Assembly (NCBI RefSeq): GCF_900186995.1
Contig: NZ_LT906463.1
Coordinates: 248,001 to 312,000, forward strand
Source: Haemophilus pittmaniae
GTDB lineage: Bacteria; Pseudomonadota; Gammaproteobacteria; Enterobacterales; Pasteurellaceae
Reading direction: 5' to 3'
Length of the DNA: 64,000 nt
Positions 5,829 through 14,210 of the stretch are shown here, piece by piece. The notes under the pieces are model-generated. The model searched no databases. It worked only from the letters and a program-made list of their open reading frames with translations, and was not told where the DNA came from. How positions within the stretch are numbered: position 1 is the stretch's first letter; every line of letters begins with the position of its first letter. The position numbers were made by a program, and so were the translations under genes.

Positions 5829-5893
5829 TTCATTTGTCACTACACAAAAATCCCGTTACAATCGCCGCCATTGTAAACATCTGGATATCAGTA

Positions 5894-7288
5894 TTGAAAG
5901 GTCTCTTTTTACGTATTATTGCGGCTCTAGCATTATTGCTTTGGGCCATTGATATGGTATTTCCCTGGCAACAAATTGCCCGCGCAGGAGAAAATCCCTA
6001 TGCGACAATCCGTGAGCGCGGCAGCTTAATCGTTGGAACAATCAATAACCCAATTTATTACTTTATTGGTAACGATGGAGAAGCCGGCTTGGAATATGAA
6101 CTGGCTAAAAATTTTGCTGACTATCTGGGCGTCCGCTTAGAAATCAAAACCTTAGAAAACAATGATGCGCTCTTCAAAGCCTTAGAAAACCACGACATTG
6201 ATATTGCCGCCGCCAACCTATTGTTCCATGGCAAGCGCGCTGAACAATTTCAAGTCGGCCCCACCTATACTTCTGCTTCTTGGCAATTGGTTTACCGCAA
6301 GGGAAATAATCGTCCCAACAGTCTAAATCAATTGCAAAATCCGGTTGAAATCGCCGCAGGCTCGGACTTAGTTGAACTATTAAATGAAGCAAAAGCACGC
6401 AATCCCAAATTACAATGGCAAGTTACTACCAACGCCACTCAAGAAGAGCTATTAATTCAGGTAGCTGAAGGAAAAATTCCTTATACCATCGCCAATAGCA
6501 TTGATGTGGCCGCCGCGCAACAAATTCGTCCGGAACTAGCCGTTGCCTTCGACTTAAGTGACGAAACCGGCGTGCATTGGTATCTCGCCAATAATACTTA
6601 TAATGAACTACAAGCCGGCTTATTGGATTTTATGGATGAGGCCTTAGAAACCGGCTTAATTGACCGCATTGAAGAAAAATATTTCCGTCACCTTTCCCAA
6701 TTTGACTATGTCGATACTAAATCCTATTTAGACGCAGTGGAAAAAGTCCTTCCACAATACCAACCGTTATTTGAAAAGTATCAAGGCGAGTTAGATTGGC
6801 GACTATTGGCGGCCGTGGCCTATCAAGAATCTCACTGGGATCCCGCCGCCACTTCGCCAACCGGTGTGCGTGGTATGATGATGCTAACCAAGGATACCGC
6901 TGATCGAATGAAAATTAGCAATCGTACCGACCCTGAACAAAGTATCAAGGCCGGTTCTGAATATCTTCACTGGTTGCTCGGCCAAATGCCCGATACCATC
7001 AACAAAGAAGAACGCATTTGGTATGCCTTGGCTGCTTATAATATGGGATTAGGTCACATTCTAGATGCCCGCCGCCTTACCAAGAATTTAGGCGGTAATC
7101 CGGATAATTGGCTAGATGTGAAAAATAATCTGCCGTTACTGTCGGAAAAACGCCATTACAGCAATCTCAAATACGGCTATGCTCGCGGTTACGAAGCCCA
7201 TCAATATGTGGAAAATATCCGCCGTTACATGAATAGCATCGTCAACTACCACCGTGTTCAAGAAAATCAGAACGAAGCGACACAATAA
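5894..7288 (+). CDS. mltF: Membrane-bound lytic murein transglycosylase F
   Basis: MltF cleaves peptidoglycan glycan strands by lytic transglycosylation. The 464-residue product has an N-terminal signal or anchor segment (~5-22), a periplasmic-binding-protein-like module (~35-255) and a C-terminal SLT domain. The catalytic Glu is in YQESHW (about residue 312), followed by GVRGMMML and AAYNMG. No ATG fits; I chose the TTG at 5894 (MKGLFLRI) because it gives a normal signal sequence. An alternative in-frame TTG at 5834 lies just after the deaD terminator and would add 20 polar residues. Confidence 0.88.
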
Positions 7289-7357: not shown

Positions 7358-7507
7358 ATGCTAAAACGTAAAACATTTTTAAAGAAAAACAAAAACCTTA
7401 ATACCACCACAGCCCGTAATCGTCGTCTACATCATCTAAAACGCCACAAAAAACGTACCTTCCAGCGTCATGCCTTACAGTTTGTGGTGCAGGACATTTG
7501 TTGTTAG
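7358..7507 (+). CDS. Small highly basic ORF, unknown function
   Basis: This 49-codon ORF starts with ATG and has a strong upstream CAGGGGGAA ribosome site at good spacing. The predicted peptide is very basic: Lys, Arg and His make up about 40% (LKRKTFLKKNKN; RNRRLHHLKRHKKRTFQRH). It ends in a short hydrophobic segment and two cysteines (VVQDICC). It does not match bL34, bL36 or RMF as I remember them, and I do not recognise the family. It may be a nucleic-acid or ribosome-binding peptide, or a fortuitous ORF. Repeat copy B follows directly. Confidence 0.45.
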   Translation: MLKRKTFLKKNKNLNTTTARNRRLHHLKRHKKRTFQRHALQFVVQDICC

Positions 7508-7519
7508 AGAACTTTTAAA

Positions 7520-7588
7520 TCAACCACAATAAAATCAATAACTTAGCATCAATTTTAGCAAAAACTCTAAAAATCAGCCCCGCGTTTT
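7520..7588 (-). repeat. Dispersed repeat copy B; left direct repeat of the nan cluster
   Basis: This copy matches 12085-12153 at 65 of 69 positions in the same orientation, much closer than any other pair. The shared segment ends in GCCCCGCGTTTT. Here the right arm of the GCCCCGC/GCGGGGC terminator seen after the other copy is absent, and different sequence follows at 7589. Confidence 0.85.
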
Positions 7589-7640
7589 AATCTGCATCCT
7601 AAAGGCTATTCATAACATTCCATGCATTAGGATGCAGATT
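7589..7640 (+). terminator. Long-loop inverted repeat, probable terminator
   Basis: Perfect 14-bp arms (AATCTGCATCCTAA at 7589-7602 and its complement at 7627-7640) enclose a 24-base loop, followed by TTCTTCTTTC. It reads as a plus-strand terminator and starts exactly where the homology between repeat copies B and C ends. Confidence 0.6.
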
Positions 7641-7671
7641 TTCTTCTTTCGAAACGGCCCCCAAAGAATAA

Positions 7672-7701
7672 AAAATTTGAGCCCTGCATCACACAGGGCT
7701 C
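7672..7701 (-). terminator. Terminator of the nanY operon
   Basis: On the minus strand, the arms GAGCCCTG / CAGGGCTC (7694-7701 and 7679-7686) are followed by AAATTTTTTA. It lies 50 bases past the stop of the nanY-like gene. Confidence 0.75.
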
Positions 7702-7751
7702 AATATTTAACTAATGTTTTTTGCGGTTTAATAACCCAATTCAGTTTGCTT

Positions 7752-8858
7752 TTATTTACCGATAATTTCTTTTAAATCAACTTTGCGGTTTTCATAACGC
7801 GAACGTGTACAAGCATCGGCGGTTGCAATCGCTGCACGAGCCGCCTCACCGGTGAGCAATTTTTCAAACTCAGCGGTTGGTTTCATGCCATGGAGAATAT
7901 CGTTTAAATAACGCATTTCTTTTTTCATAATGGAGCTCAACCACATCGGTGTTCGTTTACCCGGTTTGCCATATTGGATAGCGCCGTCCATTTCGGTGCT
8001 GTTATAAATACGGGTGCGATCATCATCCTCTTCTTGGCTTTCATGAACTAAGAAATAGGAGTCTTTGCCATCCACTCTAAGCGTGCCTTTGGTGTTGTAC
8101 ATATCGATTTTAATCGCCCCTTTTTCCCCTTGAATTAGCACATAATGTTCGCCCCAACGGAACGCCGAGCCCCATTCTAAAACGGCAAAACGATCATCAT
8201 CGAACTCCATATTCACAAAAATCATATCGTCTTCATCACCGAATTTTTCACCTTTGTGAGCCACGTTAGCCGCGGTCATGGTTACGGTTTTTGGCATGCC
8301 TCCCATGATGAACTGCACACAGTCTAATTCGTGAATGTGGTGATATAGATGGCCACCGGATTTTTCGCGAATTTTTTTCCATGAAATAGTCGGTTGCTCT
8401 TCTTCCCAACCATTACGCGCCGTATGACAATAAAGCACTTTACCAATTACGCCTTGATTGATTAATTCTTTGGCATGGTGAACACCATTAAAGAAATTCA
8501 TTACATGACCAGCCATAAAAGTCACACCATTTTCTTCACAGGCTCGTACCATGTCATCGCAATCCTGGTAACTTAAAGCAATTGGTTTTTCACAGAAAAC
8601 ATGTTTTTTATTTTTGGCGGCTAGGATCACCGGTTCCTTATGCAAATAGTTTGGTGTAGCCACAATAACGCAATCCACATTTGCCGAAGTGACTAATTCC
8701 TCTAAGGATTTTGCTGCCACACAATGCAATTCCTGAGCAATGGTTTCTCCATTTTCAGGATCAAACACCATGGTAATCTGTGCATCATCACATTCATTCA
8801 TGAAACGGGCTAATTCTGCACCAAAATAGCCAACGCCAACAACTCCATATCGCATCAT
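7752..8858 (-). CDS. nanY: NanY-like (YjhC) Gfo/Idh/MocA oxidoreductase for anhydro-sialic acid
   Basis: The 368-residue product is strongly similar along its length to E. coli YjhC (NanY). NanY is an NAD-dependent oxidoreductase that converts 2,7-anhydro-N-acetylneuraminate and related dehydro forms to ordinary sialic acid. The N-terminal Rossmann motif is GVVGVGYFGAELARF, the conserved Lys motif is CEKPIAL near residue 93, and the second-domain motif is GGHLYHHIHELD near residue 168. It is the last gene of a three-gene minus-strand unit (gntR, Gfo/Idh, nanY) and lies 10 bp after its neighbour. Activity is inferred from similarity and from the NanX-like transporter nearby. Confidence 0.88.
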   Translation of the reverse strand: MMRYGVVGVGYFGAELARFMNECDDAQITMVFDPENGETIAQELHCVAAKSLEELVTSANVDCVIVATPNYLHKEPVILAAKNKKHVFCEKPIALSYQDCDDMVRACEENGVTFMAGHVMNFFNGVHHAKELINQGVIGKVLYCHTARNGWEEEQPTISWKKIREKSGGHLYHHIHELDCVQFIMGGMPKTVTMTAANVAHKGEKFGDEDDMIFVNMEFDDDRFAVLEWGSAFRWGEHYVLIQGEKGAIKIDMYNTKGTLRVDGKDSYFLVHESQEEDDDRTRIYNSTEMDGAIQYGKPGKRTPMWLSSIMKKEMRYLNDILHGMKPTAEFEKLLTGEAARAAIATADACTRSRYENRKVDLKEIIGK

Positions 8859-8868
8859 AATAAACTCC

Positions 8869-9942
8869 CTATTTTTTCACTGAGATTTGTTTTTCCGTTA
8901 CCATTGATTGCTTAGCTGCTTCCGCAACCTCAATAGCTTCAGTTAAACATAGACTTAATGGGCTGATTTTTCCTTGCGTTAAGTGATCCACAACGCTTTG
9001 CGCTTCAATTTCGGCCGCACGGCTTAACCAAAGTTGGCAAGGTGCATGGGTGACATTATATTGCTGAGTGCCTTTAGCACTTTCCCGTAAAGATAAGTCA
9101 GCCTCAAATTCATCAAATAAATCAACGTGTTCCGTTGTTCCATCAAGATAATTAAAGGTGACACTGGAGGTAAAGAAATTCACTTCAATGACGCCTCTTT
9201 CACCATGAATTTGGATCCCCCATTGATGTAATCGATAAGCGGTACCCATTTCAAGCGAACCTAACACACCATTTTCAAAGCGAAATAGCAACTGCAATAC
9301 ATCACGGCTATCAGGCGTATCCTGATGAGCTCGATTAGCTGCTTGGGCAAAAACCGCCTCAATATCGCCTACCAACCAACACAATAAATCAAGCTCATGG
9401 ATCAGGTGAAAAAGCTCCCCACCGGTGAGATTCGCATCCAGTTTCCACCATTCTTTATTCGGCAAATTTTCAATCCAGCGCTGACGCATTGCACGAACCA
9501 CGGTAATATTGCCTAACTTGCCTTGCTCCAACACTTTTTTGACCTTTAAAATCCCCGGCAAGGTACGCTCTACATGGCCAACAAAAATATGCTTAGCTTT
9601 CTCTTCAGCCAGACGGCGTAAATGCTGGCTATGGGAAAAACTCAGAGTAAACGGTGTTTCAATAAACACATGACAGCCCGCATTAAGTGCCAAAATAGCC
9701 GGTGAATAATGGGCATAATTCGGAGTGGCAATTACCACTAAATCCGGCTTAGTTTCTGCCAACATTTCTTCAACACTAAAAAAAGCCCGACTGTCGTATT
9801 GCTCTGCCAATTTTTGTGCCAGAGAAGGATTAATATCCATCACGCCGATTAAATTTGCCTGTGCATTATGAAAAGCCGAAGCCAATTGAGCACCAAAAAA
9901 ACCGCAGCCAATTAGGCCTATGTTTAATCCATTAATTTGCAT
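8869..9942 (-). CDS. Second Gfo/Idh/MocA family protein with altered EKP motif
   Basis: The 357-residue product is a paralogue of the NanY-like protein, with Rossmann motif GLIGCGFFGAQLA and a conserved GGELFHLIHELD. The family's EKP motif, whose Lys usually helps bind cofactor and substrate, reads IETPFTL here (Glu95-Thr96-Pro97; codon ACA at 9655-9657). It may be a changed dehydrogenase, a sugar-acid isomerase or a non-catalytic partner. I do not know its substrate. The second ATG of ATGATG (9942) is best spaced from AGGAGG. It overlaps the gntR 3' end by 11 bases, so coupled translation is likely. Confidence 0.85.
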   Translation of the reverse strand: MQINGLNIGLIGCGFFGAQLASAFHNAQANLIGVMDINPSLAQKLAEQYDSRAFFSVEEMLAETKPDLVVIATPNYAHYSPAILALNAGCHVFIETPFTLSFSHSQHLRRLAEEKAKHIFVGHVERTLPGILKVKKVLEQGKLGNITVVRAMRQRWIENLPNKEWWKLDANLTGGELFHLIHELDLLCWLVGDIEAVFAQAANRAHQDTPDSRDVLQLLFRFENGVLGSLEMGTAYRLHQWGIQIHGERGVIEVNFFTSSVTFNYLDGTTEHVDLFDEFEADLSLRESAKGTQQYNVTHAPCQLWLSRAAEIEAQSVVDHLTQGKISPLSLCLTEAIEVAEAAKQSMVTEKQISVKK

Positions 9943-10693
9943 CATGCCCTCCTTGTTGTAAGCGTTGGCGAATACTTTGAAAATACTGCAGGATAGCCCG
10001 TTGCATGCGCACCAAATCATGATTTTCAACCGCATCAACCAATTCCCGATGCTGCATCGCCGATTTTTCAGCTGAGATCAGCGGCGGCGGTAAACCTTTT
10101 TCCACCTGCTGATAAATTTGCCAAAATGCATCTAAATACTGAATAAGTAACGGATTATTTAAGGGTTCGTAGAGCTTTAAATGAATCTGGTATTCATCTT
10201 TAGGAGAAAACTTTTGCTCACGAGCATTTTTTTCCATATTTGCCGCGGATTTTTGCAACATCGCAATTTGTTCCCGACTAATTTTTCCCAACACCATGGG
10301 GGCAAAACCGTATTCCAAAATTTCCCGAATATCTAAAATATTAATCAATTGATTATGGTCATTATGTAAATTCAGTTGAGTATGAAAGGTTAATCCACGA
10401 ATCATTGGCACCAGAGAGGATTCGCTTACAAAGGTACCAACGCCATGACGGATATCCAAAATATGCAATGCTTCCAAGGATTTAATCGCTTCTCGCAAGC
10501 TGGAACGGCTCACCCCAAGTTGCTCAATCAACTCATTTTCTGTCGGCATCAAATCACCCGATTTTAGGTTTTGCTTAATAATGAGCGACTTAATCTTATC
10601 CTGTAAAACGAGGCTTGCTTCTTTTTTACTTGTTTTCTTCATCTCTATTTTCATTTTTAAATCTATTTTCTGAATTTGTGATCCAGCTCTCAT
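9932..10693 (-). CDS. GntR-family (FCD) transcriptional regulator
   Basis: The 253-residue product has an N-terminal winged helix (residues ~25-95) with the GntR signature SGDLMPTENELIEQLGVSRSSLREAIK, seen in pieces, and ends the domain with HGVGTFV. An FCD ligand-binding domain follows (residues ~110-245), with the LDIREILE helix and His residues that could bind metal. It resembles regulators of sugar-acid genes such as NanR or UxuR but cannot be assigned to either. The start is uncertain: ATG at 10693, 10654 or 10642. It is divergent from the nanX-like transporter, with a 21-bp dyad between them that is probably its operator. Confidence 0.88.
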   Translation of the reverse strand: MRAGSQIQKIDLKMKIEMKKTSKKEASLVLQDKIKSLIIKQNLKSGDLMPTENELIEQLGVSRSSLREAIKSLEALHILDIRHGVGTFVSESSLVPMIRGLTFHTQLNLHNDHNQLINILDIREILEYGFAPMVLGKISREQIAMLQKSAANMEKNAREQKFSPKDEYQIHLKLYEPLNNPLLIQYLDAFWQIYQQVEKGLPPPLISAEKSAMQHRELVDAVENHDLVRMQRAILQYFQSIRQRLQQGGHDAN

Positions 10694-10702
10694 TCACTAT
10701 AA

Positions 10703-10731
10703 TTGACATAAGACATCATACGTCTTATCTT
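10703..10731 (+). promoter_or_regulatory. Predicted promoter of the nanX-like gene
   Basis: A consensus -35 TTGACA (10703-10708) and a -10 TATCTT (10726-10731) are separated by 17 bases, reading toward the transporter. The 21-bp dyad at 10708-10728 fills the spacer. Confidence 0.65.
10708..10728. promoter_or_regulatory. Predicted GntR operator
   Basis: The arms ATAAGAC / GTCTTAT flank a 7-base centre. The dyad sits between the divergent gntR and nanX-like genes, exactly within the forward promoter spacer. On the minus strand a TATGAT that could act as a -10 lies inside it, so one bound repressor could block both directions. Confidence 0.6.
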
Positions 10732-10769
10732 TATTTACGCAAGCAGAAATTAGCAATGATTTTAAATTC

Positions 10770-10785
10770 TGTGACCTGGACCACA
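10770..10785. promoter_or_regulatory. Predicted CRP binding site
   Basis: TGTGA-CCTGGA-CCACA differs from the TGTGA-N6-TCACA consensus at one position and has A/T-rich flanks. Its centre is 38 bases before the transporter start, too close to activate that gene. It lies about 84 bases upstream of the gntR start, which suits activation of the minus-strand operon. Confidence 0.6.
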
Positions 10786-10815
10786 AAATTCTCAAATACA
10801 AGGAAGGAGGTTGTT

Positions 10816-12042
10816 ATGGCAACATCGTTACCATGGTATAAAGAAGTCAGCCCTACGCAAAAGAAAGCGTTATTTGCGGCTTGGTTAGGGTATGTTTTTG
10901 ATGGCTTCGATTACATGCTGATCACTTATGTGCTATTGGATATTCAAAAAGAATTCGCCATGAGCACAACGGAAACATCCACATTATTGCTTGCGGCCTT
11001 CGTGGCACGCCCATTGGGCGGAGCGATTTTCGGTAGCTTTGCCGATAAATACGGTCGCCGTTTAGCCATGATTGTTTCCATCATTACGTATTCCGTCGGT
11101 ACATTCCTGTGCGGATTATCCACCAGTTACATTTGGCTATTTATCTTCCGTATGATCATTGGTATGGGAATGGCGGGGGAATATGCTTGTTCTTCCTCTT
11201 ATGCCATTGAGAGCTGGCCAAAACATTTGCGAACCAAAGCCAGTGCCTTTCTGGTGAGTGGCTTCTCCATTGGTAATATTCTCGCCTCCCAACTGATTCC
11301 TTGGATCGCCCAAACTTATGGTTGGCGTACCGCCTTTTTTATTGGTTTGGTACCTGTCGCATTAGTACTCTACGTCCGTCGTCATGCCCCTGAAAGTGAA
11401 GAATGGGCACAAGCGAAAGCGGCCGGTAAAGTAAATAAAGTACCGCTTACCGATCTCTTTACCAAAAAACAATTGCCTATCACCCTGATTATTTTCTTAG
11501 TTTGTTATTCCATTTTCTCCGTAAACTGGCCGGTAGTCGGTTTACTACCGCTTTACCTCAAAGAAAATGGTTATGCTGAAAATGTGAAATCACTGATGTT
11601 CTGGGCTGGTTTCGGTATTCTCATCGGAACCCTTGTCGCAGGCTTCATTGGAGATAAATTGGGTGAGAAGAAAACCTTTGTATACAGCTTACTGTTATCG
11701 CTTTTCTTCCTCTTCCCAGTATTCTATTTGCCAGAAAATAATGTGCTTGCCCTTGGCGCCCTACTCTTCTTCTTACTCGCAACCAACCTAGGTATCGCCG
11801 GTTTAGTACCAAAATATATGGCAACTTTCTTCCCTGCTGAAATGCGGAGTACCGGTATTGGTTTCATCTATAATTTTGCTGCCATTGGTGGCGGTATATC
11901 ACCGGTGATCGCTGCAGCAATTAGTGAAAAAGTAGGACTTGGTTCATCCTTGGTGTATGTAACCTTATTCTGGACTATCGTATTGGTTGCTCTTGTCGGG
12001 TTCAAAGTACCGGAATACATTCAAGCAAGAGTGCAAAAATAA
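10816..12042 (+). CDS. nanX: NanX-like (YjhB) MFS transporter for anhydro-sialic acids
   Basis: The 408-residue, 12-helix major facilitator protein is closely similar to E. coli YjhB (NanX), which imports 2,7-anhydro- and 2,3-dehydro-sialic acid. It is less like NanT, which has an inserted extra helix pair. Conserved features are WYKEVSPTQKKALFAAWLGY at the N-terminus, GYVFDGFDYM in helix 1, the DKYGRR loop 2-3 motif and RMIIGMGMAGEYACSSSYAIESWPK seen in pieces. The ATG at 10816 follows AAGGAGG; the frame is open further upstream but without family similarity. A terminator and repeat copy C follow. Confidence 0.88.
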   Translation: MATSLPWYKEVSPTQKKALFAAWLGYVFDGFDYMLITYVLLDIQKEFAMSTTETSTLLLAAFVARPLGGAIFGSFADKYGRRLAMIVSIITYSVGTFLCGLSTSYIWLFIFRMIIGMGMAGEYACSSSYAIESWPKHLRTKASAFLVSGFSIGNILASQLIPWIAQTYGWRTAFFIGLVPVALVLYVRRHAPESEEWAQAKAAGKVNKVPLTDLFTKKQLPITLIIFLVCYSIFSVNWPVVGLLPLYLKENGYAENVKSLMFWAGFGILIGTLVAGFIGDKLGEKKTFVYSLLLSLFFLFPVFYLPENNVLALGALLFFLLATNLGIAGLVPKYMATFFPAEMRSTGIGFIYNFAAIGGGISPVIAAAISEKVGLGSSLVYVTLFWTIVLVALVGFKVPEYIQARVQK

Positions 12043-12084
12043 ACAGCAGCATCTAACAATATTCACCATTCGATGGTTTATAAG

Positions 12085-12153
12085 TCAATCACAATAAAAT
12101 CAATAACTTAGCATTGATTTTGGCAAAAACTCTAAAAATCAGCCCCGCGTTTT
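12085..12153 (-). repeat. Dispersed repeat copy C; right direct repeat of the nan cluster
   Basis: This copy matches 7520-7588 at 65 of 69 positions in direct orientation. The repeat end forms the left arm and loop of a GCCCCGC/GCGGGGC terminator completed just outside it. Confidence 0.85.
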
Positions 12154-12167
12154 GCGGGGCTATTTTA
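12142..12167 (+). terminator. Terminator after the nanX-like gene
   Basis: The arms GCCCCGC (12142-12148) and GCGGGGC (12154-12160) with loop GTTTT are followed by TATTTTATT. It overlaps the end of repeat copy C. Confidence 0.8.
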
Positions 12168-12338
12168 TTGAAGTGCTTTTAACTATTGGTTGATTTGCTC
12201 GCTATTAAGACGGCCGGGTTATCTTTTGTTCGTTGCTATCATATTTTTCTATTTCCCTTATATGGATTGTTGGAAAAACTGATACTGCAAATATCTATAA
12301 CCACAGTTCATACACAACGATCAGCTGTGAAATACAGG
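12168..12338. other. Gene-free stretch
   Basis: No start codon with a ribosome site, no tRNA and no clear hairpin is visible between the copy C terminator and the nikO stop. A 17-codon minus-strand reading frame inside it is too short to support. Confidence 0.4.
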
Positions 12339-12956
12339 TCATAAACTGATAATTTCTGTGGCGAGTTCGTTAATAAACCCATGATGATGGGATGAAATCA
12401 ACATTGGTAAGGAAAGTTCACGCAAGAGTAAGGTTAGTTTTTCCGTATTTTTGCGATCTAATCCATTGGTTGGTTCATCTAATAATAGAATTTTCGGCTG
12501 CATCGCTAATACACCGGCCAGCGCAGTAAAATTTTTCTCACCACCGGATAAGGTATGTACCATGCGATCTTTTAAGTGTGTGATGCCGAGTCGTTCCAAT
12601 TGTTGCTGCGCAATATGATATGCCTGTTCTCTCGGAATATTTTGGTTTAATGGCCCAAATGCCACATCATCCAACACTGTCGGGCCAAAAAGTTGATCAT
12701 CGGCATTTTGAAAACAAATACCAATAGTGCCACGAAAAGGTGTGAAGTCTTTTTCATCACGACACACTTGCCCAAAGAGTTGAATTTCACCTCGACTGAT
12801 AGGCACAAACCCTAGCAACGCGAGTAGTAAAGTTGTTTTTCCAGAACCAATTTCCCCCTGTACAAACAGGCGTTTTTGTCCCTCTAAGGTAAAACTCAAA
12901 TCCTGAATAATGGCTCGCCCATTACGTTCTATACAAAGATTATTTACCGCTAACAT
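12339..12956 (-). CDS. nikO: Nickel ECF importer ATPase NikO
   Basis: This is the ATP-binding subunit of the energy-coupling-factor nickel importer. The 205-residue product has Walker A GEIGSGKTT near 40, the Q-loop in ICFQNADDQLFGPTV, signature LSGGEKN and Walker B ILLLDEPTNGLD. The ATG at 12956 sits one base after the nikQ stop; the upstream in-frame extension overlaps nikQ and is not conserved. At about 205 residues it is shorter than typical CbiO proteins (~270), as is usual for Pasteurellaceae NikO. It is the last gene of nikKLMQO. Confidence 0.9.
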   Translation of the reverse strand: MLAVNNLCIERNGRAIIQDLSFTLEGQKRLFVQGEIGSGKTTLLLALLGFVPISRGEIQLFGQVCRDEKDFTPFRGTIGICFQNADDQLFGPTVLDDVAFGPLNQNIPREQAYHIAQQQLERLGITHLKDRMVHTLSGGEKNFTALAGVLAMQPKILLLDEPTNGLDRKNTEKLTLLLRELSLPMLISSHHHGFINELATEIISL

Positions 12957-12957
12957 T

Positions 12958-13590
12958 TTATTTTTCTCTCTTTTTACCAAACTGAAAGCCACGACATTTT
13001 AAAGCCATTTGCGCCGTTTCAGCCTTCAATAGGGCATGAATTAATAATAAAGCGACACTTTGAGCCGTCACATATAGAGTTCGGCGATTCAGTCCTGGAC
13101 GAAATCCACGCGCCCGCATAGCAATATCCATTTTTTGGCGCAATTCACCTAGCAACGCAATGTAGCGTACGGTGAGTACAAAAAGCTGAATTAATTTTTC
13201 CGGTAAAGGCAGTTTGCCAATCGCTTGAACCAACACTGCATCGTTGATATTCCACAAAAAAAGCCATAGGGAAATCAGTAATAAATGAGTACGTAAGCTC
13301 AACTTTTCTGCTAATTCTATGCCCTGTAAATTGAGTTCAATGCCATTTTCGCCGACTTTCCAAGTTAATGTTGCCCACATCAAAGCAATAAAAACGACTA
13401 AGGTAAACCAACGTTTCAGATAAGGTCCAAAAGCTCTTTGGCTAAATAGAAGTGAAATAAGAAAGGCTGCAAATGCAAATAAATTAAGGGGGATAAGCCA
13501 AGTGAAATCGCTTAGCCCACTGATGATTAGCCCCCAAATAAACAGATAAATCAACCGAAAGTGCGGTTGAAGTAAACGATGAATTGCCAT
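12958..13590 (-). CDS. nikQ: Nickel ECF importer transmembrane subunit NikQ
   Basis: This CbiQ-type T component couples the ATPase to the substrate-binding membrane protein. The 210-residue product has four to five hydrophobic segments (for example LIYLFIWGLIISGL, LNLFAFAAFLISLLF, LLISLWLFLWNI). The coupling-helix motif with Ala-Arg-Gly is AMRARGFRPG near 160, and a second one is LKCRGFQ at the C-terminus. It overlaps nikM by one base. An exact DNA uptake signal lies at its 5' end. Confidence 0.88.
   Translation of the reverse strand: MAIHRLLQPHFRLIYLFIWGLIISGLSDFTWLIPLNLFAFAAFLISLLFSQRAFGPYLKRWFTLVVFIALMWATLTWKVGENGIELNLQGIELAEKLSLRTHLLLISLWLFLWNINDAVLVQAIGKLPLPEKLIQLFVLTVRYIALLGELRQKMDIAMRARGFRPGLNRRTLYVTAQSVALLLIHALLKAETAQMALKCRGFQFGKKREK
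13559..13567 (+). other. DNA uptake signal sequence AAGTGCGGT
   Basis: This is an exact Hin-type 9-mer, inside the 5' end of nikQ. Confidence 0.8.
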
Positions 13591-14210
13591 TAAGAGAAAT
13601 TCTCGGTGCGATTCAGTACGGCTGGGTACATCTTACAAAGCGAGGTAATGACACCAACACTAATAATGCTATCCAAAATAAATACCGGCACGTGAGAAAC
13701 CAGTAAAAGCCAAACGAGATCCAGATAGCTTTTACCACCGTCCAACATCAGCACAAAAGAGGCTAATGCGCCGGCTCCCCCCACACCAATCACGCCAGCA
13801 CCAATACCGACTAATAAGCGATCTTTTAAGGTCATTTGTGGCTGCAAACGGGAACGGAAAAGATAATGGACGATCACCGCTGGGGCTGCCATTACGCAAA
13901 GATTCACACCTAATACCGCAAATCCACCAAAGGAGAAGAAGATAACTTGCAACAACAGTGCAATAAGAAACGCCGGGAAAACCGCCCAACCAAGAAATAA
14001 ACCGGCCATGCCATTTAAAATTAAATGCACGCTACCAATTCCTACGGGCACATGAATAGTTCCTGCCACAAAAAATGCTGCGGCAAACAGCGCTGTAAGC
14101 GGCAAATTTTCCGATTCTAAACGACGCAATCCTACCGCTATGCCAGCAATTGCAAGCGCCGCGCCGGATAATAAAACAGGCGTATGTAACACGCCCTCAG
14201 ATAAATGCAT
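13590..14210 (-). CDS. nikM: Nickel-binding ECF membrane component NikM
   Basis: This is the CbiM/NikM S component that binds Ni(II). The 206-residue product begins MHLSEGVL; the N-terminal Met1-His2 is the family's metal-binding end, which fixes the start. Further His ligands lie in GTIHVPVGIGSVHLILNG (residues ~50-67). About six to seven membrane segments are visible. It overlaps nikL by one base. Nickel rather than cobalt is inferred from the NikK and NikL partners. Confidence 0.92.
   Translation of the reverse strand: MHLSEGVLHTPVLLSGAALAIAGIAVGLRRLESENLPLTALFAAAFFVAGTIHVPVGIGSVHLILNGMAGLFLGWAVFPAFLIALLLQVIFFSFGGFAVLGVNLCVMAAPAVIVHYLFRSRLQPQMTLKDRLLVGIGAGVIGVGGAGALASFVLMLDGGKSYLDLVWLLLVSHVPVFILDSIISVGVITSLCKMYPAVLNRTENFS

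What the first reader, a model, noticed from the sequence alone, without database searches (positions are those of the whole stretch)
7520..12153. The nan-like cluster is bracketed by near-identical direct repeats
The 69-bp segments at 7520-7588 and 12085-12153 agree at 65 positions and share subfamily features absent from all other copies (GCCCCGCGTTTT end, CTCTAAAAATCAG). After the right copy the GCGGGGC terminator arm is complete. After the left copy it is replaced by unrelated sequence. Inference: about 4.6 kb entered, or can leave, by recombination between repeats; the ancestral locus would hold one repeat plus the complete terminator.
Basis: partly seen in the sequence, partly recalled or inferred. 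Interest (0 to 1): 0.75.

Follow-up and report, generated by a model that had tools for sequence, protein, structure and literature searches.

The report
Sugar-acid gene cluster between sister repeats
A set of genes that look built for using a sialic-acid sugar sits in an unusual place in this Haemophilus-type chromosome, between two sister copies of a short repeat that this genome carries about 340 times, which fits an old move of the genes into a repeat but shows no sign of a mobile element at work today.

Summary
In detail: 65 of 69 positions agree; the whole element is 7513-7588 / 12078-12153, 70 of 76. The pair belongs to a ~77-nt intergenic family: 343 core matches in this genome (inferred Haemophilus pittmaniae) against 2-36 in each of 139 other genomes of the family. 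All 67 copies sampled carry the IHF consensus WATCAANNNNTTR (the seed included it) and they favour gene ends: 25 of 44 convergent gaps against 3 of 46 divergent. Bracketing alone is therefore ordinary. The similarity of the two copies is not: second of 2211 pairs, behind a pair in one tandem array.

The cluster (NanX/NanY-type genes) is whole in 9 of 10 congeners and a remnant in the tenth, with other flanks; pdxH lies within 1.7 kb of it in all 10 and near it in 2 Aggregatibacter loci. Its place here is probably derived.

Entry through a resident repeat is the best single explanation (0.45); local copying of the element after arrival is a close rival. "Can leave" is unsupported: 6 of 76 differences, longest identical run 31 bp, no recombinase gene in the segment, no second strain to compare. 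The larger find is the repeat family itself, with few uptake sequences in the same genome.

The parts
7513..7588 (+). left copy of the ~77-nt IHF-site repeat
12078..12153 (+). right copy of the repeat, direct orientation, 70 of 76 identical
7528..7548 (+). conserved core of the left copy, holds the IHF consensus
12093..12113 (+). conserved core of the right copy, holds the IHF consensus
12141..12169 (.). complete terminator-like hairpin AGCCCCGC-GTTTT-GCGGGGCT after the transporter gene, T-rich downstream on both strands
7589..7650 (+). different hairpin (14-bp stem) and T-rich tail that follows the left copy in place of the GCGGGGC arm
7666..7701 (-). terminator-like hairpin downstream of the nanY-type gene
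7752..8858 (-). NanY/NanOx-type oxidoreductase
8869..9945 (-). second Gfo/Idh/MocA oxidoreductase
9932..10642 (-). GntR/FCD regulator; best NCBIfam model NanR, far below cut-off
10816..12042 (+). MFS transporter, best informative model sialate:H+ symport type, below cut-off
5834..7288 (+). mltF, left neighbour
   Evidence: above cut-off
7358..7507 (+). 49-aa basic ORF conserved after mltF in the genus; ends 5 nt before the left copy
12339..12956 (-). cobalt/nickel-type ECF ATPase (called nikO here), right neighbour, convergent
   Evidence: below cut-offs; its neighbour 13590-14210 is CbiM above cut-off

Best explanation
In the lineage of this genome the sialic-acid-type cluster came to lie in the convergent gap between the mltF-orf pair and the nikO operon, a gap that held one copy of a common intergenic repeat with a two-way terminator. 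Entry most likely ran by recombination between that resident copy and a sister copy carried next to the cluster (a one-crossover, circle-type integration or an equivalent double exchange). It left one copy on each side, with the old terminator kept only on the right. Shown: the two copies are each other's closest relatives among those compared, similarity stops at the element ends, and the cluster lies elsewhere in congeners. Inferred: the resident copy, the crossover in the repeat, the direction of the move. The event is old (6 differences in 76), and the four ORFs between the repeats include no mobility gene.
For: Sister copies: second highest of 2211 pairs among 67 sampled elements, and the highest outside one tandem array. 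Boundaries of similarity coincide with the family element at both ends, as element-to-element recombination predicts and a random target duplication would not. Cluster homology to congeners covers 7750-12043 at about 85% in 9 of 10 genomes and three pieces in the tenth, with no homology in the flanks at the blastn setting used. pdxH (name recalled) lies 76-78 nt from the cluster in 6 of 10 congeners and 702-1661 nt in the other 4, the same right neighbour is 154-157 nt away in 9 of 10, and pdxH lies near the cluster in two Aggregatibacter loci with two ORFs between; here pdxH is at 658192, about 400 kb away, with another gene 74 nt downstream. The left copy lacks the terminator arm that three of four comparable copies keep. 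Cluster genes are closer to congeners than other genes are: aa 91-96% against 54-84%, four-fold sites 46-57% against 33-41% (G003 set).
Against: 25 of 44 convergent gaps hold an element anyway, so two flanking copies need no common cause. A crossover between two older copies does not by itself make them alike: both parents must already have shared the unusual tail. Elements can be duplicated locally without cargo. One comparable copy (1393150) also lacks the arm. Four-fold sites are near saturation, so the later-exchange signal is weak. The Rodentibacter (L056) and Macca (L059) loci show no pdxH, so the pdxH side is not the place in all bearers. No empty site or second strain could be examined.
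Confidence: 0.45

Rival explanations
1. The cluster arrived by ordinary illegitimate or flank-borne recombination, and the repeat was copied afterwards (or during repair) from one new convergent gap to the other, because this family tends to fill gene-end gaps.
For: 25 of 44 convergent gaps are occupied. A ~93-nt-period array of four elements at 1299091-1299371, three of them 67-71 of 76 identical, shows local copying. The duplicated unit is just the element.
Against: Apart from this pair and the array, neighbouring elements are no more alike than distant ones: variable-column identity 0.45 at 3-10 kb, this pair included, against 0.43 overall. No copying machinery was identified.
Confidence: 0.3
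2. Two unrelated resident copies became alike by gene conversion over 4.6 kb.
For: Direct orientation and short distance would allow it.
Against: No distance effect in 13 pairs at 0.5-3 kb or 65 pairs at 3-10 kb.
Confidence: 0.12
3. The repeats are attachment or end sites of a small mobile element that moves or excises the cluster.
For: Direct repeats at both ends; IHF sites are typical of recombination sites (general knowledge).
Against: The four ORFs between the repeats are two oxidoreductases, a GntR regulator and a transporter. Hundreds of copies lie elsewhere in the genome. 6 of 76 differences argue against recent excision.
Confidence: 0.05
4. The cluster is ancestral at this site and moved away in the lineage of the congeners.
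For: The cluster is sporadic in the family: transporter matches at E <= 1e-100 in 16 of 140 genomes, 4 of 43 genera, and not near pdxH in the Rodentibacter and Macca loci.
Against: pdxH is near it in 10 of 10 congeners and 2 of 2 Aggregatibacter loci, which makes that place the likelier old one.
Confidence: 0.08

Closest known systems
REP/BIME elements, RIP/RIB type with IHF site (enterobacteria; features recalled)
   Same: Hundreds of short intergenic copies at convergent and tandem gene ends, few in divergent gaps; an IHF site inside.
   Different: No palindromic REP unit seen in the consensus; fixed ~77-nt layout of several blocks; no repeat-specific Y1 transposase: one Y1_Tnp gene here and one each in 2 of 10 congeners that lack the repeat.
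Correia/NEMIS elements of Neisseria
   Same: Small repeats; the 155-bp form has an IHF site and is almost only intergenic (PMC2229807, passages seen).
   Different: Correia elements have ~24-bp terminal inverted repeats and target duplication (PMC2229807); the consensus here has no inverted ends (read by eye).
E. coli nanXY (yjhBC) and R. gnavus NanOx system
   Same: The NanY-type enzyme matches 6z3b/6z3c (E about 1e-190; R. gnavus NanOx by recall) and YjhC 6o15 (E 5e-170) over its whole length, beside a sialate-type MFS transporter. In E. coli both genes are needed for 2,7-anhydro-Neu5Ac (PMC7535918, passages).
   Different: Adds a second oxidoreductase and a GntR regulator; substrate not tested.
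Composite transposons and IS-bracketed cargo
   Same: Cargo between direct repeats.
   Different: The repeats are 76 nt and carry no gene; no transposase among the four ORFs between them.

Membership tests
REP/BIME (RIP type) | many short intergenic copies | tested here: met
   161 + 203 core matches in the genome against 2 + 4 for the reversed control; 1 of 66 sampled copies lies mostly in an ORF
REP/BIME (RIP type) | rarity in divergent (promoter) gaps | tested here: met
   3 of 46 divergent, 33 of 125 tandem, 25 of 44 convergent gaps; conv. vs div. Fisher p 1.8e-7 (gaps of 60 nt or more from a simple ORF rule)
REP/BIME (RIP type) | palindromic REP units | tested here: not met
   consensus of 67 copies read by eye; no dedicated palindrome scan was run on all copies
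REP/BIME (RIP type) | partner RAYT (Y1_Tnp) | tested here: inconclusive
   one Y1_Tnp gene in the own genome, also in 2 of 10 congeners without the repeat
Correia/NEMIS | terminal inverted repeats of ~24 bp | tested here: not met
   consensus, read by eye; feature
Correia/NEMIS | IHF site | tested here: met
   67 of 67 copies match WATCAANNNNTTR at one place; the copies were seeded by a core that includes it; consensus; binding not tested
Composite or integrative mobile element | transposase or integrase gene in the bracketed segment | tested here: not met
   four ORFs, none a recombinase
Composite or integrative mobile element | excision product or empty site | not testable with these tools
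   the genome collections hold one genome per species; no reads
nanXY anhydro-sialic-acid locus | NanOx/NanY enzyme linked to a sialic-acid-type transporter | tested here: met
   the transporter scores 507.7 bits against a cut-off of 637 for its nearest equivalog model and 450 against 604 for the sialate model, so its exact type stays open
nanXY anhydro-sialic-acid locus | growth on 2,7-anhydro-Neu5Ac | not testable with these tools
   needs an experiment

The most novel reading that the evidence does not exclude
The ~77-nt IHF-site repeat is an element expanded in one Haemophilus lineage that is copied into gene-end gaps and, when two sister copies flank a gene set, can carry it from gap to gap. 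In the same lineage it took over gene-end space from the uptake-sequence pairs that were lost.
Probability: 0.08. Interest if true: 0.75.

Novelty: new member of a known kind. Interest (0 to 1): 0.4.

Why it matters
For the finding itself: it offers a case of a metabolic gene set changing place in a naturally transformable group with a common short repeat at both seams. More widely, this genome has about 340 copies of an IHF-site repeat that the ten congeners examined lack, and 205 uptake cores where they hold 1276-1481. That makes the spread of short intergenic repeats, and the loss of uptake sequences, testable between sister species.

Tried and rejected
Chance similarity: rejected. General gene conversion between neighbours: no distance trend. 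Target-site duplication by random insertion: the duplicated unit ends with the family element, so the simple form is rejected. RAYT-driven REP spread: one Y1_Tnp gene here and in 2 of 10 repeat-free congeners, not informative. Known RNA family: the Rfam scan of the window at gathering scores gave nine tRNAs and two leaders. Short duplications flanking the elements: mean longest shared word 4.47 against 4.23 (sd 0.13) in shuffles; the longest belong to a TGTCAC subtype, so not a general feature. Uptake cores in the cluster as a donor mark: none within one mismatch in 7589-12077, against 3-4 exact ones in each of nine congeners counted with 100-200 nt of flank (G006 not counted); uninformative because this genome is poor in them. 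A comparison of synteny breaks with element positions was not done: it would need whole relatives.

Full report
What is there. The segments 7520-7588 and 12085-12153 agree at 65 of 69 positions; the full alignable unit is 7513-7588 and 12078-12153 with 70 of 76 identical, in direct orientation, 4565 nt apart. Similarity ends with the unit: the 40 nt before and after agree at 30% and 27.5%. Twenty shuffles of the window (+ strand) gave at most 38 of 69.

The unit is a family element. A core pattern (TAATAAAATCAATNNNTTA, up to 2 mismatches) matches 161 + 203 times in the 2.18-Mb genome against 2 + 4 for the reversed control. With a core one base shorter and one mismatch the count is 343 here and 2-36 in each of 139 other genomes of the family. 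The ten congeners gave no hit to a consensus-like 77-mer. In the family 11 of 140 genomes had a hit, with few candidates scored per genome; besides the own genome only G080 matched over most of the length, 81% over 68 nt. In 482 kb of this genome (window, 20 stretches of 20 kb and one of 18 kb; 22%) a profile finds 67 copies, all scoring above 40 with nothing between 18 and 40, and none in one shuffled version. Several blocks are fixed in sequence and spacing: TTTT at the 5' end, AATAAAATCAATNNSTTA, TTTT, AAAAC, and GGGGCGTTT at the 3' end; the rest varies. Mean pairwise identity is 68%.

What the element may do. All 67 copies match the IHF consensus WATCAANNNNTTR at one place (consensus as printed in PMC6011942, one passage seen). 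The seed contains this core, so 67 of 67 is partly built in; the three most variable columns of the core fall on N positions of the consensus. The 482 kb hold 142 matches to the consensus on both strands, reversed control 30. The element is intergenic (1 of 66 mostly inside an ORF) and sits at gene ends: 25 of 44 convergent, 33 of 125 tandem and 3 of 46 divergent gaps of at least 60 nt hold one (gaps from a simple ORF rule, not a gene caller). In some copies the 3' block is one arm of a terminator-like hairpin (for example 260092, 361219, 364327, 1371518, 1405921); in most it is not. IHF binding, a role at transcript ends and spread by copying are inferences.

The pair is special. Of 2211 pairs among the 67 copies this pair ranks second, after two members of a tandem array of four elements; ranks three and four belong to that array. 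In that array three members share 67-71 of 76 positions and the fourth shares 60-62 with them. In the own-genome search the right copy is the best match of the left by a wide margin (40 of 308 candidates scored). Beyond 500 nt, neighbouring elements are not more alike than distant ones. So the two are sisters, whereas an element in both of two convergent gaps would be expected in roughly a third of cases, and in direct orientation in half of those (my arithmetic).

The cluster. NanY-type oxidoreductase, second Gfo/Idh/MocA oxidoreductase, GntR/FCD regulator and sialate-type MFS transporter. All 10 congeners have the NanY-type gene, truncated and with a stop in G006; 9 of 10 align over 7750-12043 at about 85%, and G006 keeps three pieces. 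It is not within about 1.3 kb downstream of mltF in any of them, and mltF and nikO are far apart or on different contigs in all 10. pdxH lies 76-78 nt from the cluster in 6 of 10 and 702-1661 nt in 4 of 10; the same right neighbour lies 154-157 nt away in 9 of 10, not found in the G010 stretch. In two Aggregatibacter loci pdxH is near with two ORFs between. The Rodentibacter (L056) and Macca (L059) loci show neither gene. Here pdxH is about 400 kb away. The names pdxH and deaD are recalled, not scanned. The transporter occurs at E <= 1e-100 in 16 of 140 genomes and 4 of 43 genera of the family. Protein identity to G003 is 91-96% for the cluster and 54-84% for deaD, mltF, pdxH and the nikO operon; four-fold sites 46-57% against 33-41%, and 45-57% against 27-42% in the G004 set. 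That hints at exchange after the species split, but the sites are near saturation.

Reading. The place of the cluster here is probably derived. The simplest account is entry through a resident repeat with a two-way terminator. Right of the cluster that terminator stands (12141-12169); left of it the copy is followed by another hairpin (7589-7640) that could serve the same + strand role, and by a - strand hairpin after the nanY-type gene (7666-7701). Six differences in 76 and identical runs of at most 31 nt make the event old and excision by general recombination presumably rare. Copying of the element into the newly made gap is nearly as good an account.

Window GC is 42.4%, genome size 2.18 Mb; H. 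pittmaniae is described as sister of H. parainfluenzae with 42.4% GC and 2.20 Mb (PMC13076348, one section and passages seen). I infer H. pittmaniae.

Literature. Searches for H. pittmaniae with genome and repeat (24 papers, 10 listed), at least two of Pasteurellaceae, IHF and intergenic repeat (21 papers, 12 listed), and Haemophilus with interspersed repeat and integration host factor (1 paper) showed no title or abstract start on this repeat (listings only); the library holds open-licence papers only. Uptake-sequence background is from PMC1626085 (passages); PMC10955332 on anhydro-sialic-acid transporters has no mention of Haemophilus (passages).

Noticed in passing
whole genome (G000): Only 205 exact Hin-type uptake cores AAGTGCGGT, against 1276-1481 in each of ten congeners; still above the reversed control (36).
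   Followed up: partly
G000:C1:1299091-1299371: Tandem array of four elements with ~93-nt period, three of them 67-71 of 76 identical.
   Followed up: partly
G000 sampled stretches, e.g. C1:1287086, 1397541, 284632: TGTCACATTT occurs 8 times in 482 kb, 7 of them at a fixed offset from an element; some elements have related motifs on both sides as direct repeats about 97 nt apart.
   Followed up: partly
window 7358-7507: 49-aa basic ORF after mltF, conserved in all ten congeners, no Pfam match at E 0.01; in congeners a hairpin (by eye) follows its stop.
   Followed up: partly
L024 (G006): Cluster reduced to pieces of the nanY-type and transporter genes, an internal deletion.
   Followed up: no
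L090 (G080, another genus): Single good copy of the element, just upstream of an ORF start.
   Followed up: no
L019, L020, L024, L028: In 4 of 10 congeners extra sequence (about 0.7-1.7 kb between pdxH and the cluster) lies where the other 6 have 76-78 nt, so that junction is variable too.
   Followed up: no
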